From positions 1 through 41,949 of the forward strand of contig LSLI01000015.1 of the NCBI GenBank assembly GCA_001577345.1: a stretch of DNA of 41,949 nt, written 5' to 3'. The notes below the pieces were generated by a model. That model did no database searches, was not told the origin of the DNA, and saw only the letters and a program-made list of their open reading frames with translations. A program made the translations under genes and the position numbers. The first letter of the stretch is position 1. Each line of letters opens with the position of its first letter. The stretch is from Candidatus Gallionella acididurans (GTDB lineage: Bacteria; Pseudomonadota; Gammaproteobacteria; Burkholderiales; Gallionellaceae). Below are positions 7,025-41,949 of the stretch, piece after piece.

Positions 7025-7675
7025 TCAGTTCGCGGACGAATAATAGTTGCGGGCAGTGCCGCGCGACAAAGCCCAGTGATTATGCCAGGCGGCACGCACC
7101 AGATTCGGATATCCGGGTTTTCCCAGCGTGCCGTTGTAACGCCCCAGAGCACGGTACAAATTGCCTTTTTCCATGTCCAGGTAATAGCGCAGGATGGTGC
7201 AACCGTAGCGCAGGTTGACGCGCATATGGAACAAGTCCTGTTCTTTCGTGCCGAGTTCACTCACCCAGAACGGCATCACCTGCATATAGCCGCGCGCACC
7301 GGATCCGGATACCGCGTACTTGTTGAAATGACTCTCGACCTCGATCAAACCCAACACCAATTCCGGATCCAGCCCCGCGCGCGTGGCTTCGTAATGGACT
7401 GTCTTTAAAAAATCCATCCGATATTCGGCATCAGGCAAGTTTTTCTGCAAACGGCGCGACATCGTATTCAACCAGAAGTCCGCTTCATATTGCGTGGCAA
7501 ACGCAAGTTTGAGCGGAGCCTGATCGGACACGCTGCGCTGCAATACCGTGCGTACACTGGCAGATAGCGGTGCATAGATTTGCCCTCCGGCCTGTGCGGT
7601 GCCGGCAAACAGCATTCCCGCCACGCACAATGGCAGGGCAAAATACAGTGAGTGTGTGTGTCGTATCAGTCGCAT
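7025..7675 (-). CDS. Exported lytic transglycosylase, SLT domain
   Basis: The 216-residue protein starts with a signal peptide (cleavage near AQA-GG, about residue 29). It contains a C-terminal SLT (goose-lysozyme-like) domain from about residue 95. The catalytic Glu is in [15 protein letters not shown], followed by the family motifs [12 protein letters not shown] and ALGRYNG. Such enzymes cleave peptidoglycan between MurNAc and GlcNAc with formation of 1,6-anhydro-MurNAc. No lipobox is seen, so it is probably soluble in the periplasm. Its first codons overlap the proS stop by 10 bp, so it is the second gene of a proS transcript. Confidence 0.9.
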
Positions 7676-35951: not shown

Positions 35952-36291
35952 CATGAAATCCACAAGCGATCTAACCAGCAGGCGATGCAAGCCCTGCGCA
36001 CCCGGCACCCCCCCGTTATCCAACTCCGAAGCGGACAGTTTGATGAACCAACTCGAGGGTTGGCAACGTTACGATCACCTCATCAACAGGACCTACCGCT
36101 TCAAGAATTACTACGAGACCATCGCGTTCGTCAATGCGGTCGCATGGCTATCGCACAGCGAGGACCATCACCCGGAGCTGGCCGTTTCCTATAACAAATG
36201 CCAGGTTGAATACAGCACCCATTCGATTCACGGCCTGTCCGAAAACGACTTCATCTGCGCTGCAAAAGTAAACGCGCTGTTCAAGATTTGA
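35944..36291 (+). CDS. phhB: Pterin-4a-carbinolamine dehydratase
   Basis: The 115-residue protein has the PCD signature: EADSLMNQLEGW, YRFKNYYETIAFVNAVAWLSHSEDHHPELAVSYNKCQVEYSTHSIHGLS. The catalytic His residues in HSEDHHPE and THSIHGLS are intact. The family recycles oxidised tetrahydropterin after aromatic amino acid hydroxylation; in bacteria without a hydroxylase it has been linked to molybdopterin or folate metabolism. No hydroxylase is in the window. The start could be 35944 or 35953; neither has a well-spaced ribosome-binding site. Confidence 0.9.
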   Translation: MHDMKSTSDLTSRRCKPCAPGTPPLSNSEADSLMNQLEGWQRYDHLINRTYRFKNYYETIAFVNAVAWLSHSEDHHPELAVSYNKCQVEYSTHSIHGLSENDFICAAKVNALFKI

Positions 36292-36302
36292 AAACACCAA
36301 TC

Positions 36303-36380
36303 TGCCACAGAGTACACAGAGATCACAGAGAAAATGTGCACTACTGTTTCTCTCTCTGTGTCCTCTGTGATCTCTGTGGC
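36303..36380. repeat. CACAGAG-type imperfect inverted repeat
   Basis: The left arm (36303-36333) begins GCCACAGAGTACACAGAG and the right arm (36347-36380) ends TGTGATCTCTGTGGC; the arms are largely complementary and would form a long hairpin. The internal CACAGAG/CTCTGTG units recur several times. It lies between the PCD gene and the rsgA start and resembles dispersed intergenic repeats seen in many environmental bacteria. Confidence 0.75.
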
Positions 36381-36387
36381 TTGAATT

Positions 36388-37398
36388 GTGGTTTTTAGCT
36401 TGAATCCAACCATCAAAGGTCAAATCGTTGCCGCATTCGGCCGCCAGTATCTGGTTCGCCTTGCCGACGGCAGCGAGATAGCCTGTTTGACGCGCGGGAA
36501 AAAAAGCGAGGTGGCGTGCGGCGATCTGGTGGAAATCCAGCGCACAGCAGACGCATCGACAGAAAACGGAACCGGTGCGCAAGGAGTGATCGAACGCATC
36601 TCGCCGCGCCGTTCGCTTCTGCATCGCTCCGTTGCCTTCCGCGAAAAACTCATCGCGGCCAACGTCACGCAAATCATCGTGGTGGTCGCAGCGGAGCCCT
36701 CTTTCAGCGACGAGTTGCTGGCACGTTGCCTGGTCGCGGCTTTCGATCAAAAGCTCGAAGTGCTGATCGTGCTGAACAAATGCGACCTGCCTGCCGCCGC
36801 AGACGCCGCCCGCAAACGGCTCTCCACCTATACCGCCATCGGCTACCGCGTGCTGGAACTCAGTGCCAAAAATCCTACCAGCCCCTCCACGCTAGAAAAT
36901 ACGGAACAACCTGCCCCTCGTAAACTGGAGGGACGATTGCCTCCTCCCCCTGCCAAGGAAAAGATTGCGGGGGTGGTGGAGGGGGTGGACTCGCTGCGCC
37001 CGCTCCTGCACGGCCACACCAGCGTGCTGGTCGGACAATCCGGCATGGGTAAATCCACGCTGATCAATGCGCTACTGCCGGACGCACAAGCCGCCACGCG
37101 CGAAATTTCCACCGTGCTGGATTCCGGCAAGCACACCACCACCCATGCACGTCTATATCGTATCGATGAGTCCAGTGGCCTGATCGACTGCCCCGGCGTG
37201 CAAGCCTTCGGCCTGCATCACCTGAGCTTTGGCGGAATAGAACAGGGTTTTGTGGAATTTGCGCAATATCTGGGGCAATGCCGCTTCCGCGACTGCCGCC
37301 ACGCGCATGAACCGGGCTGCGCATTACGCAACGCTGTTGCGGAGGGAAAGATAGCCGCGCGCAGATTGGAACTGTTCCGGCAGATCGCCGGAAAGTAA
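36388..37398 (+). CDS. rsgA: Ribosome small-subunit GTPase A
   Basis: RsgA is a circularly permuted GTPase that assists late 30S maturation. The 336-residue protein has an N-terminal OB fold (about 10-85), then G4 NKCDL (130-134), G5 SA (159-160), G1 GQSGMGKST (216-224), G3 DCPG (267-270) and a zinc knuckle with Cys298, Cys303, His305 and Cys311. Between G5 and G1, residues 161-199 form a Pro/Lys-rich stretch not expected in the family. The start is a GTG at 36388 or a TTG at 36400, both without a clear ribosome-binding site, and the CACAGAG repeat lies directly upstream. Its stop codon touches the terminator of the antisense tracrRNA. Confidence 0.93.
   Translation: MVFSLNPTIKGQIVAAFGRQYLVRLADGSEIACLTRGKKSEVACGDLVEIQRTADASTENGTGAQGVIERISPRRSLLHRSVAFREKLIAANVTQIIVVVAAEPSFSDELLARCLVAAFDQKLEVLIVLNKCDLPAAADAARKRLSTYTAIGYRVLELSAKNPTSPSTLENTEQPAPRKLEGRLPPPPAKEKIAGVVEGVDSLRPLLHGHTSVLVGQSGMGKSTLINALLPDAQAATREISTVLDSGKHTTTHARLYRIDESSGLIDCPGVQAFGLHHLSFGGIEQGFVEFAQYLGQCRFRDCRHAHEPGCALRNAVAEGKIAARRLELFRQIAGK
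36868..36984. repeat. Probable repeat insertion inside rsgA
   Basis: These 117 bases encode the extra segment of RsgA (SPSTLENTEQPAPRKLEG then RLPPPPAKEKIAGVVEGV). The DNA has the C-rich/G-rich layout of dispersed palindromic repeats (CTCCTCCCCCTGCCAAGG on one side, GGGGGTGGTGGAGGGGGTGG on the other). Its length is a multiple of three and keeps the frame. That it is an inserted repeat is inference. Confidence 0.45.
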
Positions 37399-37424
37399 AA
37401 AGCCCCTCGCTTGCGCGAGAGGCT
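37396..37424 (-). terminator. Rho-independent terminator of the tracrRNA
   Basis: In minus-strand RNA AGCCTCTCGC pairs with GCGAGGGGCT around a GCAA loop and is followed by TTTTT (arms at 37401-37410 and 37415-37424). One pair is a G-U wobble on this strand but a C-A mismatch in + strand RNA, and the + side has no T-run. The hairpin therefore serves minus-strand transcription. Confidence 0.85.
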
Positions 37425-37520
37425 CATGGTTTACCCCTTGGGGTTATCCTGCGAAGATTCTCACTGAGAGTTTCCTCTTATTGTGAAAAGCAAGGCGGGC
37501 ATCGGTCAGTTACAATACGG
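37396..37520 (-). ncRNA. Candidate tracrRNA of the type II-C system
   Basis: This RNA would pair with pre-crRNA repeats and load Cas9. Reading on the minus strand, it begins about 37519. The anti-repeat occupies 37516-37481 (36 nt); its + strand reads TTGTGAAAAGC ... CAGTTACAAT, matching the usual ends of II-C repeats. The anti-repeat is followed by AAG and three hairpins: AGAG-GAAA-CTCT (37467-37478), ACCCC-AA-GGGGT (37433-37444) and the terminator stem (37401-37424). The CACAATAAG junction resembles the ACAAUAAGG of the Neisseria meningitidis tracrRNA. Length is about 124 nt. The gene is divergent from cas9 and convergent with rsgA. No CRISPR repeat is in the window, so pairing could not be tested directly. 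Confidence 0.8.
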
Positions 37521-37525
37521 GACGA

Positions 37526-37554
37526 AGTATAGTTGGCTGCGCTACAAATTACAA
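37526..37554 (-). promoter_or_regulatory. Promoter of the tracrRNA
   Basis: On the minus strand TTGTAA (37554-37549) and TATACT (37531-37526) are separated by exactly 17 nt. A start 6-8 nt downstream falls just before the anti-repeat, as expected for a tracrRNA. Confidence 0.75.
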
Positions 37555-37585
37555 CAAATGTGAATCAAGCACATATCAGCAGCCC

Positions 37586-37600
37586 TTCCTGAACTAGGAA
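37586..37600. repeat. Palindrome between the tracrRNA promoter and cas9
   Basis: TTCCT-GAACT-AGGAA is a 5-bp-arm palindrome 85 bp upstream of the cas9 start codon. It could be an operator; nothing else supports this. No clear cas9 promoter was found in 37555-37684. Confidence 0.3.
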
Positions 37601-37684
37601 GATCGAGGAGAGTTAAAGGTTAGGGAGCGTCAAGATCGCACCTTGGATTTTGCTTGCTCAACTGTCATTCACAAAGGGGGCATG

Positions 37685-40672
37685 ATGGGCAATTTCACTT
37701 TAGGACTGGATTTAGGCACCAACTCAATCGGCTGGGCACTGATTGATTTCGACGATAACCAGCAGCCCCAAAATCTCATTGCCTGCGGTTCTCGCATTTT
37801 TCAGGAAGCAGTCGAGGCAAAAACCGGCACACCGAAAAATCATGCCCGCCGCGCTGCGCGAGCAGCCCGCAAGCTAGTGGCGCGGCGCAAGCAGCGGCGC
37901 ACCAAACTGCTTAACCTCCTTGTTTGTCATGACCTGTTGCCGCAGGATGAAGCGGAACGCAACGCATTGCTGCTGGACAATCAAGCCAACAATCCCTACC
38001 AATTGCGCAAGCGCGGGCTGGATGAAAAACTGGAACCGTTCGCCTTTGGCCGCGCGCTTTACCACCTCGCCCACCGGCGCGGATTCCAGAGTAACCGCAA
38101 GGCCGCATCGGATGAGGATGGCAAAGTCAAAACTGCCATCTCGGCTTTGCGCGCCGAAATGCAAGGCCATACTCTCGGCGCATTTTTGGCCGATCAACCC
38201 ACCCAGCGCAGACGCTATACCGACCGCGCCATGTACGCGGAAGAATTCGAGCAACTGTGGAGCAAGCAGACAATCTTCGCACCTGAGCAACTGACGCAGG
38301 CGCTCAAGGTTGAAATCAAAAACAGCATTTTCTTTCAGCGCCCGCTCAAGTCGCAAAAACATCTGGTCGGTAAATGTACTTTTGAACCTACGCGCAAGCG
38401 TGCCGCCAAAGCCATCTTGCTGGCGCAACACTTTCGTATTCTGCAAGACGTGAACCATCTCGCCGTGAAGAATCCCATCACGCGCGAATTCCGCCCTCTC
38501 ACACAGGATGAGCGCAACAAACTCGCCGAAGCGCTCGACAAACAAAAAGGCATGAATTGGAGCGCGGTACGCAAAGTTATTGGCTGGAACAAGAAAGACA
38601 GCCTGCACGAAGGCGAAACCTTCAATCTGGAGGAAGGCAAAAAAGACAAACTGATCGGCAACCGCACCGCCTGCGATCTGCGCGGCGCGCTGGGTGATCG
38701 CTGGGATGCGTTCACCGCACCGCAGCAAGATGACTTGGTGACCGACCTGCTCACCATTGATAACCCCGATGGTTTTCTCAAACGCATGAAAACCCATTGG
38801 GGCTTTGACGATGCAACAGCCGAAGCTCTCGCCACCACAGAACTGGAACCCGGCTATGCGCGGCTATCCTCCAAAGCAATGCGCGCCATTTTGCCGCATC
38901 TCGAACAAGGCATGATCTACAGCGACGCCTGCAAAGCGGCCGGCTACGACCACAGCAACCCGAACCAGAGAACCATTACCGACAAGCTCGGCCTGCCCTC
39001 CAACGTGCGCAACCCGGTGGTGCAGAAGGCACTGTTCGAGACGCGCAAGGTGGTCAACGCCATCGTGCGCAAGTATGGCAAGCCAGCCGTCATTCGCGTG
39101 GAAATGGCGCGCGACATGAAACTCTCCAAACGCCAGAAGGAAGAATTGCAAAAGGAGCAGAACAAACAGAAGAAGGCCAACGAGCTTGCCGAAGGAATCC
39201 TGCGCAAAGAATTCGGCATTCAGCAACCCGCCCGCACCGACATCCAGAAATACAACCTATGGCTGGAGTGCAAGGAAGTCTGCCCCTATACCGGCACGGT
39301 CATCTCGCGCGAAATGCTCTATTCGCCGGAAGTGGATGTCGAGCACATCCTGCCATACAGCCGTTCGCTGGATGACTCGTACATGAATAAGACGCTGTGC
39401 ATGGCAACCTATAACCGCCAAACAAAGCTCAACAACACGCCTTATGAAATAGGCCAAGGCGATCCGGTAGCTTATGCGGAAATTTTTCAGCGCATCAAAA
39501 CGCTCCCCTTCCCCAAGCGCCGCCGCTTCGAGCAAAAGGAAATCGAAACGGATAAATTCATCGAACGACAATTGAACGACACGCGCTACATCTGCGTTGA
39601 GGTGCGGGACTTCCTGCAACAACTCGGCGCACCCGTGGAAGTCAGCAAGGGCGAAGCCACCGCGAAATTGCGTGGCCGCTGGAAGCTGAATACCCTCCTC
39701 TCTCCCGGCGGTGGTAACGAAAAAAACCGCGCTGACCACCGCCACCACGCGATAGATGCCGTGGTCATCGCGCTGACCAACCGCAGCCTGTTCCACAAAC
39801 TGTCGCGCCTGTCCGCGCAAAGCATATCGTTCGACAAAAGCCGCTTCGACGTGCCGCCGCCGTGGGATGATTTCTACGACGATGTGTACGAAAAAATAGA
39901 CAAGGTGATCGTCTCTCACGCCCCTACGCGCAAGATTAGCGGCGCGCTGCATGAAGCCACGGCATATGGCCATTTCAAAGAAGAGATTGCCGATCCTAAA
40001 ACGGGGAAATTCAGCATCGAAGATCGTTTTGTTTATCGCAAGCCGCTAACTACACTCACTGCAAATGAAGTCGGCAAAATACGCGATGCCAAAGTACGCG
40101 AGCTGGTAGAAGCACGATTGGCACAGTTCGGCAATAACAGCAAAGCTGCCTTCGGTGACCCAAACGAACCGCTGCTACACGCAGATGGCAAAACGCCTAT
40201 CCGCACGATAAGACTTACTACCAATTTCAACAAGACCACTACCCACGCAATTCAAAAAGGCCAAGACCGCGATTACAAATTTTTCAAATACGGCAACAAC
40301 CATCACGTCGAAATTATCGAGCATGTTGAAACTGGCAAACGCAAAGGCATTTTCGTTACGGCAATGGAGGCGGCACGGCGGGCGCGCGGCGTAGCCAACA
40401 CCGAGAAGAGCAACATCGTTCAGCGCAATCATGGTGACGGGTGGAAATTCGTGATGTCGTTGGCAGTCAATGACATGGTACGCACTGAAGATACCCAGGC
40501 AATCTATCGAGTACAAAAACTGGATGGATCGAACAACCGATTCACCTTGCGCTCACATAACGCGGCAACGCTGGATGATAAGCAAACAGGAGTTGATAAA
40601 ACACCGAACCTGTTTAAGGGAACAAAGATAATCGTTGACCCACTAGGCAACCTCACCCAATGCAATGATTAA
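37685..40672 (+). CDS. cas9: Type II-C CRISPR-associated endonuclease Cas9
   Basis: An RNA-guided DNA endonuclease cutting both strands of targets matched by crRNA. From ATG 37685 (tandem with 37682; AAGGGGG just upstream) it has 995 residues, a compact size near Campylobacter jejuni Cas9 (984). RuvC-I is LGLDLGTNSIGWAL (Asp9). The Arg-rich bridge helix is at about 52-76 (HARRAARAARKLVARRKQRR). RuvC-II is VIRVEMARDMK (Glu473). The HNH domain has VDVEHILPYSRSLDD (Asp551, His554) and YNRQTK (Asn577), and RuvC-III is ADHRHHAIDAVVIALT (His687, Asp691). All catalytic residues are present, so it should cleave. The PAM-interacting domain is the C-terminal 220 residues; the PAM cannot be read from sequence. 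It overlaps cas1 by 8 bp. Confidence 0.97.
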   Translation: MGNFTLGLDLGTNSIGWALIDFDDNQQPQNLIACGSRIFQEAVEAKTGTPKNHARRAARAARKLVARRKQRRTKLLNLLVCHDLLPQDEAERNALLLDNQANNPYQLRKRGLDEKLEPFAFGRALYHLAHRRGFQSNRKAASDEDGKVKTAISALRAEMQGHTLGAFLADQPTQRRRYTDRAMYAEEFEQLWSKQTIFAPEQLTQALKVEIKNSIFFQRPLKSQKHLVGKCTFEPTRKRAAKAILLAQHFRILQDVNHLAVKNPITREFRPLTQDERNKLAEALDKQKGMNWSAVRKVIGWNKKDSLHEGETFNLEEGKKDKLIGNRTACDLRGALGDRWDAFTAPQQDDLVTDLLTIDNPDGFLKRMKTHWGFDDATAEALATTELEPGYARLSSKAMRAILPHLEQGMIYSDACKAAGYDHSNPNQRTITDKLGLPSNVRNPVVQKALFETRKVVNAIVRKYGKPAVIRVEMARDMKLSKRQKEELQKEQNKQKKANELAEGILRKEFGIQQPARTDIQKYNLWLECKEVCPYTGTVISREMLYSPEVDVEHILPYSRSLDDSYMNKTLCMATYNRQTKLNNTPYEIGQGDPVAYAEIFQRIKTLPFPKRRRFEQKEIETDKFIERQLNDTRYICVEVRDFLQQLGAPVEVSKGEATAKLRGRWKLNTLLSPGGGNEKNRADHRHHAIDAVVIALTNRSLFHKLSRLSAQSISFDKSRFDVPPPWDDFYDDVYEKIDKVIVSHAPTRKISGALHEATAYGHFKEEIADPKTGKFSIEDRFVYRKPLTTLTANEVGKIRDAKVRELVEARLAQFGNNSKAAFGDPNEPLLHADGKTPIRTIRLTTNFNKTTTHAIQKGQDRDYKFFKYGNNHHVEIIEHVETGKRKGIFVTAMEAARRARGVANTEKSNIVQRNHGDGWKFVMSLAVNDMVRTEDTQAIYRVQKLDGSNNRFTLRSHNAATLDDKQTGVDKTPNLFKGTKIIVDPLGNLTQCND

Positions 40673-41549
40673 GCGCATCGTCGAAATCAGCAATCCCACC
40701 TACCTACATCTGCGCAACCGGCAGATGGTGATTGAGCGCGAGGGCGTGGAAGCTGGCAGCGTTCCGGTGGGGGACTTGGGTGTGCTGATCCTCGACCATC
40801 CCGGCATCACCCACACGCAAGCCCTGCTCACGGCCTGCTTTGAGAACAACGTGGTGGTGCTGATATGCGACAGCAAGCATCTGCCGAGCGCCATTCTGCT
40901 GCCGCTGGACGGGCACACGCTGCACAGCAAGACATTGGGGCAGCAGATTGCCGCGACCGAACCCACCTGCAAACGGCTGTGGCAGCACGTCGTGCAAGCC
41001 AAGATACGCGAACAGGCGAAGGTGCTGCATTCCGCGACCGGCAATGACAATCCGTTGCGCGCCTACGCGGCAAAAGTGAAAAGTGGTGACCCGGAAAATA
41101 TCGAGGCGCAGGCGGCACGTATTTACTGGCAGCGTCTGTTCGGCCCGGAGTTCCGCCGCAACCCTGATACACCCGGCATCAACGCTATGCTCAACTACGG
41201 CTACGCGGTGATGCGCGGTGCGGTAGCGCGCGCGGTGGTGGGCGCGGGGCTGCATCCGGCGCTGGGTGTGCATCACCGCAACCAGTACAACAGCTTCGCA
41301 CTGGCGGACGACTTGATGGAACCGTTGCGCCCGCTGGTGGACATCAAGGTGTACGAAGTGTGCGAGCTGATGCCGGATACGCCCGAACTCACGCCGGCAA
41401 ACAAACGCTCCCTGCTGGAAATTCTCGGCTGGGATTGCAGCATAGGCGAACGCAAATTTCCGCTGATGGTCGCGCTGCACCAATACGCCGCCAGCGTGCG
41501 CAAAGTGTTGGCAGGAGAAGAAAAGGAAGTGGAGATTCCAGTGTTATGA
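40665..41549 (+). CDS. cas1: CRISPR integrase Cas1 (type II)
   Basis: Cas1, with Cas2, integrates new spacers at the leader end of the array. The 294-residue protein has the metal-binding residues Glu147 (NIEAQAARIYWQRLFG), His203/204 (HPALGVHHRNQYNSFALA) and Asp216/Glu219 (DDLMEPLRP). The sequence is that of type II Cas1. The start overlaps the end of cas9 and its stop overlaps cas2 (ATGA), so all three are translated from one message. Confidence 0.96.
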   Translation: MIKRIVEISNPTYLHLRNRQMVIEREGVEAGSVPVGDLGVLILDHPGITHTQALLTACFENNVVVLICDSKHLPSAILLPLDGHTLHSKTLGQQIAATEPTCKRLWQHVVQAKIREQAKVLHSATGNDNPLRAYAAKVKSGDPENIEAQAARIYWQRLFGPEFRRNPDTPGINAMLNYGYAVMRGAVARAVVGAGLHPALGVHHRNQYNSFALADDLMEPLRPLVDIKVYEVCELMPDTPELTPANKRSLLEILGWDCSIGERKFPLMVALHQYAASVRKVLAGEEKEVEIPVL

Positions 41550-41875
41550 GTTTCGGAGGATTTCGCAGCATGTGGATCATCGCCATGTTTGACCTGCCCA
41601 CTGACACCAAGGCCGCGCGCCGCGCCTATCACGACTTCCGCGAATCCCTGCTCAATAATGGTTTCACCATGATGCAGTTTTCCGTGTACGGGCGGCATTG
41701 TCCCAGCGAAGAAAATGCCGATGTCCACGAGAACCGGATAAAATCGTTCCTGCCGAATGACGGCGAAGTGCGCGTGCTCACCGTGACGGACAAACAGTTC
41801 GAGCGCATGAAAGTTTTTTACGGCAAGGTGCGCAAAGCCACGGAGGCAGCACCAGAACAAATCAGCTTCTTTTGA
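41546..41875 (+). CDS. cas2: CRISPR adaptation protein Cas2
   Basis: Cas2 bridges two Cas1 dimers in the spacer-integration complex. The 109-residue protein has the ferredoxin-like fold starting MWIIAMFDLPTDTKAARRAY, with the conserved Asp in MFDLP, and QFSVYGRHC, VRVLTVTDKQFERM. The ATG at 41546 overlaps the cas1 stop; ATG 41570, preceded by GGAGG, would remove eight residues and is a fair alternative. No csn2 or cas4 follows before the window ends, which fits type II-C. Confidence 0.95.
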   Translation: MSFGGFRSMWIIAMFDLPTDTKAARRAYHDFRESLLNNGFTMMQFSVYGRHCPSEENADVHENRIKSFLPNDGEVRVLTVTDKQFERMKVFYGKVRKATEAAPEQISFF

Positions 41876-41919
41876 CGAAAAACTTTGTATGATCGAGAAA
41901 ATTCAAACGCAAAAATGCA

Positions 41920-41949
41920 AAACCAGAACGAAAAAGCCCGTTCTGGTTT
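41920..41949 (+). terminator. Hairpin after cas2, at the window edge
   Basis: AAACCAGAACG (41920-41930) and CGTTCTGGTTT (41939-41949) form a perfect 11-bp stem around AAAAAGCC. It is most simply the terminator of the cas operon, bidirectional in form; a T-run beyond the edge cannot be seen. It does not resemble the repeat predicted from the anti-repeat. Confidence 0.6.

What the first reader, a model, noticed from the sequence alone, without database searches (positions are those of the whole stretch)
37396..37554. Complete antisense tracrRNA gene between rsgA and cas9, predicting the unseen CRISPR repeat
On the minus strand I see a promoter (TTGTAA, 17 nt, TATACT), a start just before a 36-nt anti-repeat (37516-37481), three hairpins and a terminator whose G-U wobble and T-run are only favourable on that strand. 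The anti-repeat's + strand begins TTGTGAAAAGC and ends CAGTTACAAT, the form of II-C repeats. The array repeat is therefore predicted to be about 36 nt with those ends. The divergent arrangement with cas9 and the terminator touching the rsgA stop make a very compact locus.
Basis: partly seen in the sequence, partly recalled or inferred. Interest (0 to 1): 0.8.

Follow-up and report, generated by a model that had tools for sequence, protein, structure and literature searches.

The report
Type II-C CRISPR tracrRNA gene, confirmed

Summary
The minus strand at 37396-37554 carries a complete tracrRNA gene: a 9-of-12 sigma-70-like promoter, a 36-nt anti-repeat, two scaffold hairpins and a terminator. 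The repeat, unseen in the window, was found. Contig C113 of the same genome holds 7 copies of GTTGTGAATTGCGGGCGGGCATCGGTCAGTTACAAT with 29/30-nt spacers. The predicted start TTGTGAAAAGC is really GTTGTGAATTGC, because the duplex has a small internal loop and a bulge. The duplex is predicted at -60.5 kcal/mol, against -17.5 +/- 3.6 for shuffled repeats. The same gene lies ahead of cas9, on the same strand, in 20 of 20 related loci examined (two match only in part). Repeats and anti-repeats change together (1 of 20,000 permutations as good). A covariance model hits 2 of 399 genomes of the order, the two that carry this Cas9 lineage. The window contig breaks inside the cas2-array hairpin; C113 fits beyond the break in orientation. 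It is a new member of a known kind: a working system of the same layout, EHCas9, is published (PMC10281378). A possible self-capping fold of the free tracrRNA is weakly supported and unproven.

The parts
37396..37519 (-). tracrRNA gene, about 124 nt; start site inferred 7 nt after the -10 box
   Evidence: Covariance model R1 hit 37394-37516, 126.8 bits (the window is in its training set); fold z -3.4; 20 of 20 related loci carry it
37526..37554 (-). tracrRNA promoter: TTGTAA (37554-37549), 17 nt, TATACT (37531-37526)
   Evidence: 9 of 12; 0.6 expected by chance; of 12 loci scored, 6 reach 9 or more of 12; 6 do not, of which L024 and L025 score below the mean of their shuffles. Loci L017, L018, L021 and the six were not scored
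37481..37516 (-). anti-repeat, complementary to the 36-nt CRISPR repeat of contig C113 (L009:7244-7672)
   Evidence: duplex -60.5 kcal/mol against -17.5 +/- 3.6 for shuffles
37453..37477 (-). first scaffold (nexus) hairpin, lengthened by an insert in this lineage compared with L022-L028
   Evidence: Alignments A1/A2; 95.8% of cells of the closing helix paired
37428..37449 (-). second scaffold hairpin CCCC/GGGG closed by GG/CC, motif GCAGGAUA-hairpin-UAAACC
   Evidence: helices 2 and 3: 100% and 93.3% of cells paired
37396..37425 (-). intrinsic terminator of the tracrRNA; T-run overlaps the rsgA stop
   Evidence: strict terminator on the tracr strand in 19 of 21 loci; on the other strand weak ones in 4 of 21, none in the window
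36388..37398 (+). rsgA, ribosome small-subunit GTPase, convergent neighbour
   Evidence: TIGR00157, PF03193
37682..40672 (+). cas9, 996 aa, type II effector; RuvC-I motif at residue 7, HNH motif at 552, RuvC-III motif at 682 present
   Evidence: TIGR01865 712.7 bits; Pfam HNH_4, RuvC_III, Cas9_a; motif positions
40665..41549 (+). cas1, type II
   Evidence: TIGR03639 294.6 bits
41546..41875 (+). cas2 (ATG at 41546 is my reading; 41549-41872 was searched)
   Evidence: TIGR01573 71.4 bits
41905..41949 (.). left part of the cas2-array hairpin, at which the contig breaks
   Evidence: Full 26-bp palindrome in L018, 19-20 bp in L019, L022, L023; right arm on no other contig of the genome within 3 mismatches

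Best explanation
37396-37519 (minus strand) is the tracrRNA gene of a type II-C CRISPR-Cas9 system. It would be transcribed divergently from cas9 by sigma-70 RNA polymerase and end at the intrinsic terminator abutting rsgA. Its 36-nt anti-repeat anneals to the repeats of the pre-crRNA made from the array now on contig C113. The duplex has an 8-bp lower stem, a 2x2 internal loop and a long upper stem with one bulge. The two scaffold hairpins would hold the duplex in Cas9. Shown here: sequence, complementarity, co-variation with each genome's own repeat, conservation of scaffold and terminator, linkage to this Cas9 lineage. Inferred from established type II biology: transcription, duplex trimming (RNase III or not), Cas9 loading, interference.
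For: The own genome has 7 exact repeats on C113 and no other match within 3 mismatches of the 28-nt core. Duplex -60.5 kcal/mol against -17.5 +/- 3.6. Among 10 loci with their own array, 1 of 20,000 re-pairings is as good as the cognate one; for the repeat's last 16 nt alone, 0 of 20,000. Anti-repeat on the same strand ahead of cas9 in 14 of 14 relatives and 6 of 6 further ones. Strict terminator on the tracr strand in 19 of 21 loci. A covariance model finds the gene in 21 of 21 loci, 9 of them outside its training set, though L018 is nearly a copy of the window and L029 scores 27.6 bits, no better than some array repeats. In whole genomes of the order it hits 2 of 399: the own genome and G331, whose Cas9 is 78% identical. 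The 24 other genomes with a Cas9 match at E 1e-50 or better give none (strict filters that can lose weak matches). Three relatives (L018, L019, L022) share the exact repeat and carry the array just after cas2.
Against: No transcript data. The promoter motif alone is near chance in a 600-bp stretch, and in 6 of 12 loci the score stays below 9 of 12. The cognate pair is not always the best: L022, L023, L025 and L026 rank second or third in a row or column of the energy table because close relatives pair equally well or better. L027 and L029 match a repeat over only 24 and 21 nt. The scaffold hairpins show little co-variation of their own (1 compensated pair, reached by 129 of 500 shuffles). The array and the cas genes are on separate contigs; the join is inferred.
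Confidence: 0.97

Rival explanations
1. The anti-repeat is only a worn-out, isolated CRISPR repeat (a relic of an array) and makes no RNA of use.
For: It resembles a repeat along its whole length, including the 3' half that a mature crRNA is usually thought to lose (recalled).
Against: An anti-repeat with the scaffold behind it is kept in 20 of 20 related loci, in lineages whose repeats differ (L029 and L030 aligned only), and the covariance model is tied to this Cas9.
Confidence: 0.02
2. The stretch acts on the plus strand as well: the repeat-derived TACAAT at 37511-37516 is the -10 box of the cas9 promoter, so one element serves tracrRNA pairing and cas9 transcription.
For: In L022, L023, L028 and L029 the Cas9 match starts only 44-48 bp after the anti-repeat, so a promoter of its own would have to overlap the tracrRNA gene. 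TACAAT or TATAAT ends the plus strand of the anti-repeat in 8 of the 12 loci printed. Type II-C repeats are reported to carry promoters (PMC10281378 section 21; PMC12638026 passages).
Against: No -35 box: the best plus-strand score in the window is 7 of 12 and the scan found no plus-strand promoter. The other 4 of 12 loci (L027-L030) have altered ends. Being the mirror of the repeat explains TACAAT without any promoter role.
Confidence: 0.12
3. The tracrRNA serves another array than the one on C113.
For: The two are on different contigs of a 316-contig assembly.
Against: Only C113 matches in the whole genome (at E 0.001, within 3 mismatches); three relatives hold the identical repeat directly behind the same cas operon; C113 has the orientation expected at the contig break.
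Confidence: 0.02

Closest known systems
EH CRISPR-Cas9 (type II-C; PMC10281378, section 21 read in full, other passages by search)
   Same: cas9-cas1-cas2 only; [quoted passage not shown] array inferred to be transcribed in the tracrRNA's direction; 36-bp repeats, 29-bp spacer; contig also broken in the array; shown there to interfere with plasmids in E. coli
   Different: EHCas9 has 1070 aa and its closest homologues are in Alphaproteobacteria; this Cas9 has 996 aa with nearest relatives in Gallionella/Nitrosomonadales assemblies. The EH tracrRNA letters are in a figure not held, so they were not compared.
Neisseria meningitidis-type II-C systems
   Same: 36-nt repeat of the form GTTGT...ACAAT (recalled); array opposite to the cas operon (type II-C rule in PMC3936727, passages)
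   Different: No direct comparison was run. The nearest solved Cas9 by sequence (9ar4, species not given in the listing) reaches 293.9 bits over query residues 5-741; a difference of scaffold sequence is recalled only
Cas9 lineage of L017-L030 (Gallionella, Nitrosomonadales, Sulfuricella, Brocadia, Kuenenia and other assemblies)
   Same: tracrRNA ahead of cas9 on the other strand in 14 of 14; scaffold motif GCAGGAUA-hairpin-UAAACC in most, varied in L024, L029 and L030
   Different: The window and L017-L021 carry a longer first hairpin; the window, L017-L019 and L021 have 165-166 bp between anti-repeat and cas9, the other ten 44-77 bp

Membership tests
tracrRNA gene | anti-repeat outside the array that pairs with the genome's own repeat | tested here: met
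tracrRNA gene | scaffold hairpins and intrinsic terminator behind the anti-repeat on the same strand | tested here: met
tracrRNA gene | transcribed as a small RNA | not testable with these tools
   No RNA data; promoter motif only
tracrRNA gene | binds Cas9 and supports crRNA-guided cutting | not testable with these tools
   Needs a biochemical or E. coli interference assay
type II-C CRISPR-Cas | Cas9 with RuvC and HNH motifs, type II Cas1, Cas2 | tested here: met
type II-C CRISPR-Cas | no csn2 or cas4 in the locus | tested here: inconclusive
   No further gene was seen between rsgA and the contig end, but the contig stops 74 bases after cas2. In the 10 relatives printed the stretch from cas2 to the array is too short for a gene
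type II-C CRISPR-Cas | array transcribed opposite to the cas operon (rule as given in PMC3936727) | tested here: inconclusive
   The array sense is opposite to cas9 in 12 of 13 related loci with an array in reach; L030 is the exception. For the window it rests on the inferred join to C113, and transcription was not measured
type II-D / Cas9d | NCBIfam NF049971 above its cut-off | tested here: not met
   140.8 bits, cut-off 375
any Rfam family | covariance model above gathering score | tested here: not met
   0 matches in the window against 4227 families

The most novel reading that the evidence does not exclude
The free tracrRNA caps itself: the 3' side of the first hairpin and the GCAGG behind it (GUGAGAAUCUUCGCAGG in the window) pair with the crRNA-binding part of the anti-repeat (CUUGC, UUUUCAC). 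Nexus folding and crRNA pairing would then be kept apart until a crRNA invades. On A2 (12 sequences) 89.5% of cells pair, against at most 50.4% when slid; 2 of 500 shuffles reach the share paired and the covariation score, 16 of 500 the 3 compensated pairs. The cognate arrangement is matched by 26 of 50,000 swaps. The structure was taken from the window's own fold, which favours it in the slide control.
Probability: 0.12. Interest if true: 0.5.

Novelty: new member of a known kind. Interest (0 to 1): 0.3.

Why it matters
It shows that a tracrRNA gene read from raw sequence can predict an unseen CRISPR repeat and that the prediction can be checked in the rest of the genome. It also completes the guide RNA parts (repeat, tracrRNA, terminator) of a 996-aa Cas9 whose nearest relatives are in Gallionella/Nitrosomonadales assemblies and, further off, in anammox-type bacteria. 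A search of the held open-licence papers for tracrRNA, Cas9 and Gallionella together found none.

Tried and rejected
Pseudo-repeat idea: that the segment behind the anti-repeat is a copy of the crRNA repeat's 5' part. Rejected: the combined p over 11 loci is 0.086 and 13,167 of 20,000 re-pairings score as well as the cognate one.

Self-cap of the free tracrRNA: kept only as the novel case. Against it: with the downstream piece shuffled, the window's own cap energy is average (0.504 of shuffles as good), and 9 of 10 loci are not exceptional by that test; with the anti-repeat piece shuffled, 3 of 10 are below 0.05. The compensated pairs lie in and beside a gapped part of the alignment, one sequence each, and the crRNA duplex (-60.5) far outweighs the cap (-5.4).

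Protospacers: 19-21-nt seeds of the 6 unique spacers against IMG/VR gave 1 hit in 6 scans: spacer 3, 24 of 29 over the full spacer, inside a terminase large-subunit gene. Spacer 7 may be cut by the contig end. The array against phage records gave 7 records, all Microviridae by name or by the records read, all of spacer 6 (best 28 of 30, E 0.01). The 3' flanks are NCCAG in the 4 of 7 records read and GATCG for spacer 3; no PAM can be claimed. Of five relatives' arrays sent to the phage records (L030, L024, L028, L020, L023), four gave nothing and L023 one spacer match, in 5 Bordetella phage records, E 0.005; its flank was fetched but not analysed.

The right arm of the cas2-array hairpin was sought elsewhere in the genome: not found. 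Rfam: nothing in the window.

Full report
What is there. The stretch between rsgA (stop 37396-37398) and cas9 (ATG 37682) holds, on the minus strand, a sigma-70-like promoter TTGTAA-17-TATACT (37554-37526), a 36-nt anti-repeat (37516-37481), two small hairpins and an 11-bp terminator hairpin with a T-run (37425-37396). The terminator pattern exists on that strand only. The fold is better than all 200 shuffles, z -3.4. The promoter and terminator motifs taken singly are near the chance rate of the scan (0.6 expected each in 600 bp); what makes them convincing is their order and, for the terminator, its conservation. The promoter is less well conserved by consensus score: 6 of 12 loci reach 9 of 12.

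The predicted repeat. The window is the whole of contig C15 (41,949 bases) of a 316-contig genome, so the array could not be seen. Searching the genome with the stretch gave 7 further matches, all on contig C113. They are a CRISPR array of 7 exact repeats, GTTGTGAATTGCGGGCGGGCATCGGTCAGTTACAAT, 36 nt, with spacers of 29 or 30 nt, two of them identical, running to the contig end at 7701. A pattern search of the genome with the last 28 nt and up to 3 mismatches found no other copy. The 5' part differs at the loop and bulge: 32 matches, 3 mismatches and one gap against the anti-repeat. The duplex has 8 pairs, a 2x2 internal loop, 2 pairs, a one-base bulge and then unbroken pairing to the end, -60.5 kcal/mol; shuffled repeats give -17.5 +/- 3.6.

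Relatives. A scan of genome contigs gave 14 loci with related Cas9 (42-87% identity in the best segment), and a scan of 398 genomes of the phylum 6 more at E 1e-120 or better. In 14 of 14 and 6 of 6 an anti-repeat lies ahead of cas9 with the tracrRNA on the opposite strand. L027 and L029 match over only 24 and 21 nt. L017, L021, L027, L067, L070, L074 and L075 show no array of their own and were tested with a relative's repeat. Thirteen of the 20 loci have an array in reach. In 12 of these the repeat's sense is opposite to the cas genes, in L030 the same. L018, L019 and L022 have exactly the window genome's repeat. RsgA lies beside the tracrRNA in the window and in L018 only (1 of 20).

Co-variation. 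I paired the repeats of 10 loci (window, L020, L022-L026, L028-L030) with all ten anti-repeats. The cognate sum was matched or beaten by 1 of 20,000 permutations, and for the repeat's last 16 nt by 0 of 20,000. L018 and L019 were left out as copies of the window's pair; L072 and L073 were found later. Relatives are not independent, so these are not exact probabilities, and in four loci (L022, L023, L025, L026) a close relative's partner pairs as well or better.

Scaffold. Aligned tracrRNAs share AUAAG or a near form, a first hairpin, GCAGG or GUAGG, a hairpin with its closing GG/CC in the nearer lineage, a UAAACC or UAACC-like end and the terminator. On the 12 sequences of A2 the named pairs form in 95.5% of cells, against 61.4% at the best slide, but vary too little to show co-variation. 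In the window and L017-L021 the first hairpin has an insert. A covariance model built from those 12 finds all 21 loci in place, 9 of which it was not built from. Of these, L018 is nearly a copy of the window, and L029 scores only 27.6 bits, within the range of array repeats (up to 30.3). Fourteen loci of other Cas9 lineages show nothing at E 0.1, though some of those loci hardly reach past the start of cas9. In 399 whole genomes of the order it hits 2, the own genome and G331, which are the two with this Cas9 lineage. G331 also has three weak hits at E 0.002-0.008, one of them in its array behind cas2; the two on another contig were not examined. The 24 other genomes with a Cas9 match at E 1e-50 have no hit, under filters that can lose weak matches.

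The contig break. Behind cas2 the relatives L018, L019, L022 and L023 have a perfect palindrome of 19-26 bp, then 25-32 bp, then the array; L020 has 10 perfect pairs, and the more distant L024-L026, L028 and L029 at most 6. The window ends at 41949 inside that palindrome, and its right arm is on no other contig of the genome within 3 mismatches. C113 turned round begins with array in the sense seen behind cas2 in the relatives. So C15 and C113 most likely adjoin; this is inferred.

Cas genes. Cas9 has 996 aa, TIGR01865 at 712.7 bits, with RuvC and HNH motifs. It is below the cut-off of Cas9d. Cas1 is of the type II kind; Cas2 follows. The solved structure nearest in sequence reaches 293.9 bits.

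Compared with what is known. A tracrRNA gene between a promoter and a terminator upstream of cas9, with 36-bp repeats and an array inferred to be transcribed the same way, is described for the type II-C EH system, which works in E. coli (PMC10281378: section 21 read in full, other passages by search). PMC3936727 (passages) states that type II-C arrays run opposite to the cas operon and that Cas9 and dual RNA co-evolve. PMC7606464 (passages) finds tracrRNA placement and folds generally conserved within Cas9 clades. PMC12638026 (passages) reports for type II-C promoters in repeats and acquisition at the 3' end. The arrays here fit that: the cas2-distal last repeat is the degenerate one in L023 (1 change) and L024 (9 changes), while the other 9 arrays examined show no changed repeat. 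I saw nothing in the window that departs from this picture.

The one open idea. In the free RNA the anti-repeat's crRNA-binding part is predicted to pair with the 3' side of the first hairpin and the GCAGG behind it. Pair counting gives 3 compensated pairs (16 of 500 shuffles reach that; 2 of 500 reach the share paired and the covariation score), a second drawing of the cap gives 5-6 of 500, and swaps favour the cognate arrangement (26 of 50,000; 228 of 50,000 without L029 and L030). Shuffling the downstream piece, however, gives equally good caps in 9 of 10 loci, and the idea that this piece copies the repeat failed. I count it as unproven.

Verdict.

Noticed in passing
window 41905-41949; L018, L019, L022, L023 between cas2 and the array: A long perfect palindrome (19-26 bp arms) sits between cas2 and the array in the near relatives and its arms differ in sequence while staying complementary, as a two-way terminator between convergent transcripts would. 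The window contig ends inside it.
   Followed up: partly
L017:5390-5529: The contig folds back at this palindrome and ends in 66 bases that are the exact reverse complement of what precedes the loop, probably an assembly artefact.
   Followed up: partly
L009:7477-7505 and 7542-7570: Two neighbouring spacers of the C113 array are identical (a duplicated repeat-spacer unit).
   Followed up: no
L009:7607-7636: Spacer 6 resembles Microviridae pilot-protein genes (28 of 30 to MH992170, 27 of 30 to PP511556 and PP511417, 26 of 30 to MG945426), E 0.01 at best; a small ssDNA phage may be a target.
   Followed up: partly
L009:7412-7440; L059:2783-2802: Spacer 3 matches a viral contig with its last 20 nt exact (24 of 29 overall) inside a terminase large-subunit gene.
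   Followed up: partly
L030:10116-13832: Array of 57 repeats in the same sense as cas9, unlike the 12 other loci with arrays.
   Followed up: no
window 37517-37681: The window lineage has about 120 bp more between the anti-repeat and cas9 than L022 or L028; what the extra stretch does is unknown.
   Followed up: no
window 36300-36390: An inverted repeat of the 'CACAGAG...CTCTGTG' kind lies between the ORF ending at 36291 and rsgA; it was seen by eye only.
   Followed up: no
G331:C21:131-403: Two weak hits of the tracrRNA model (E 0.008) lie on a second contig of G331, perhaps repeats of an array there; not examined.
   Followed up: no
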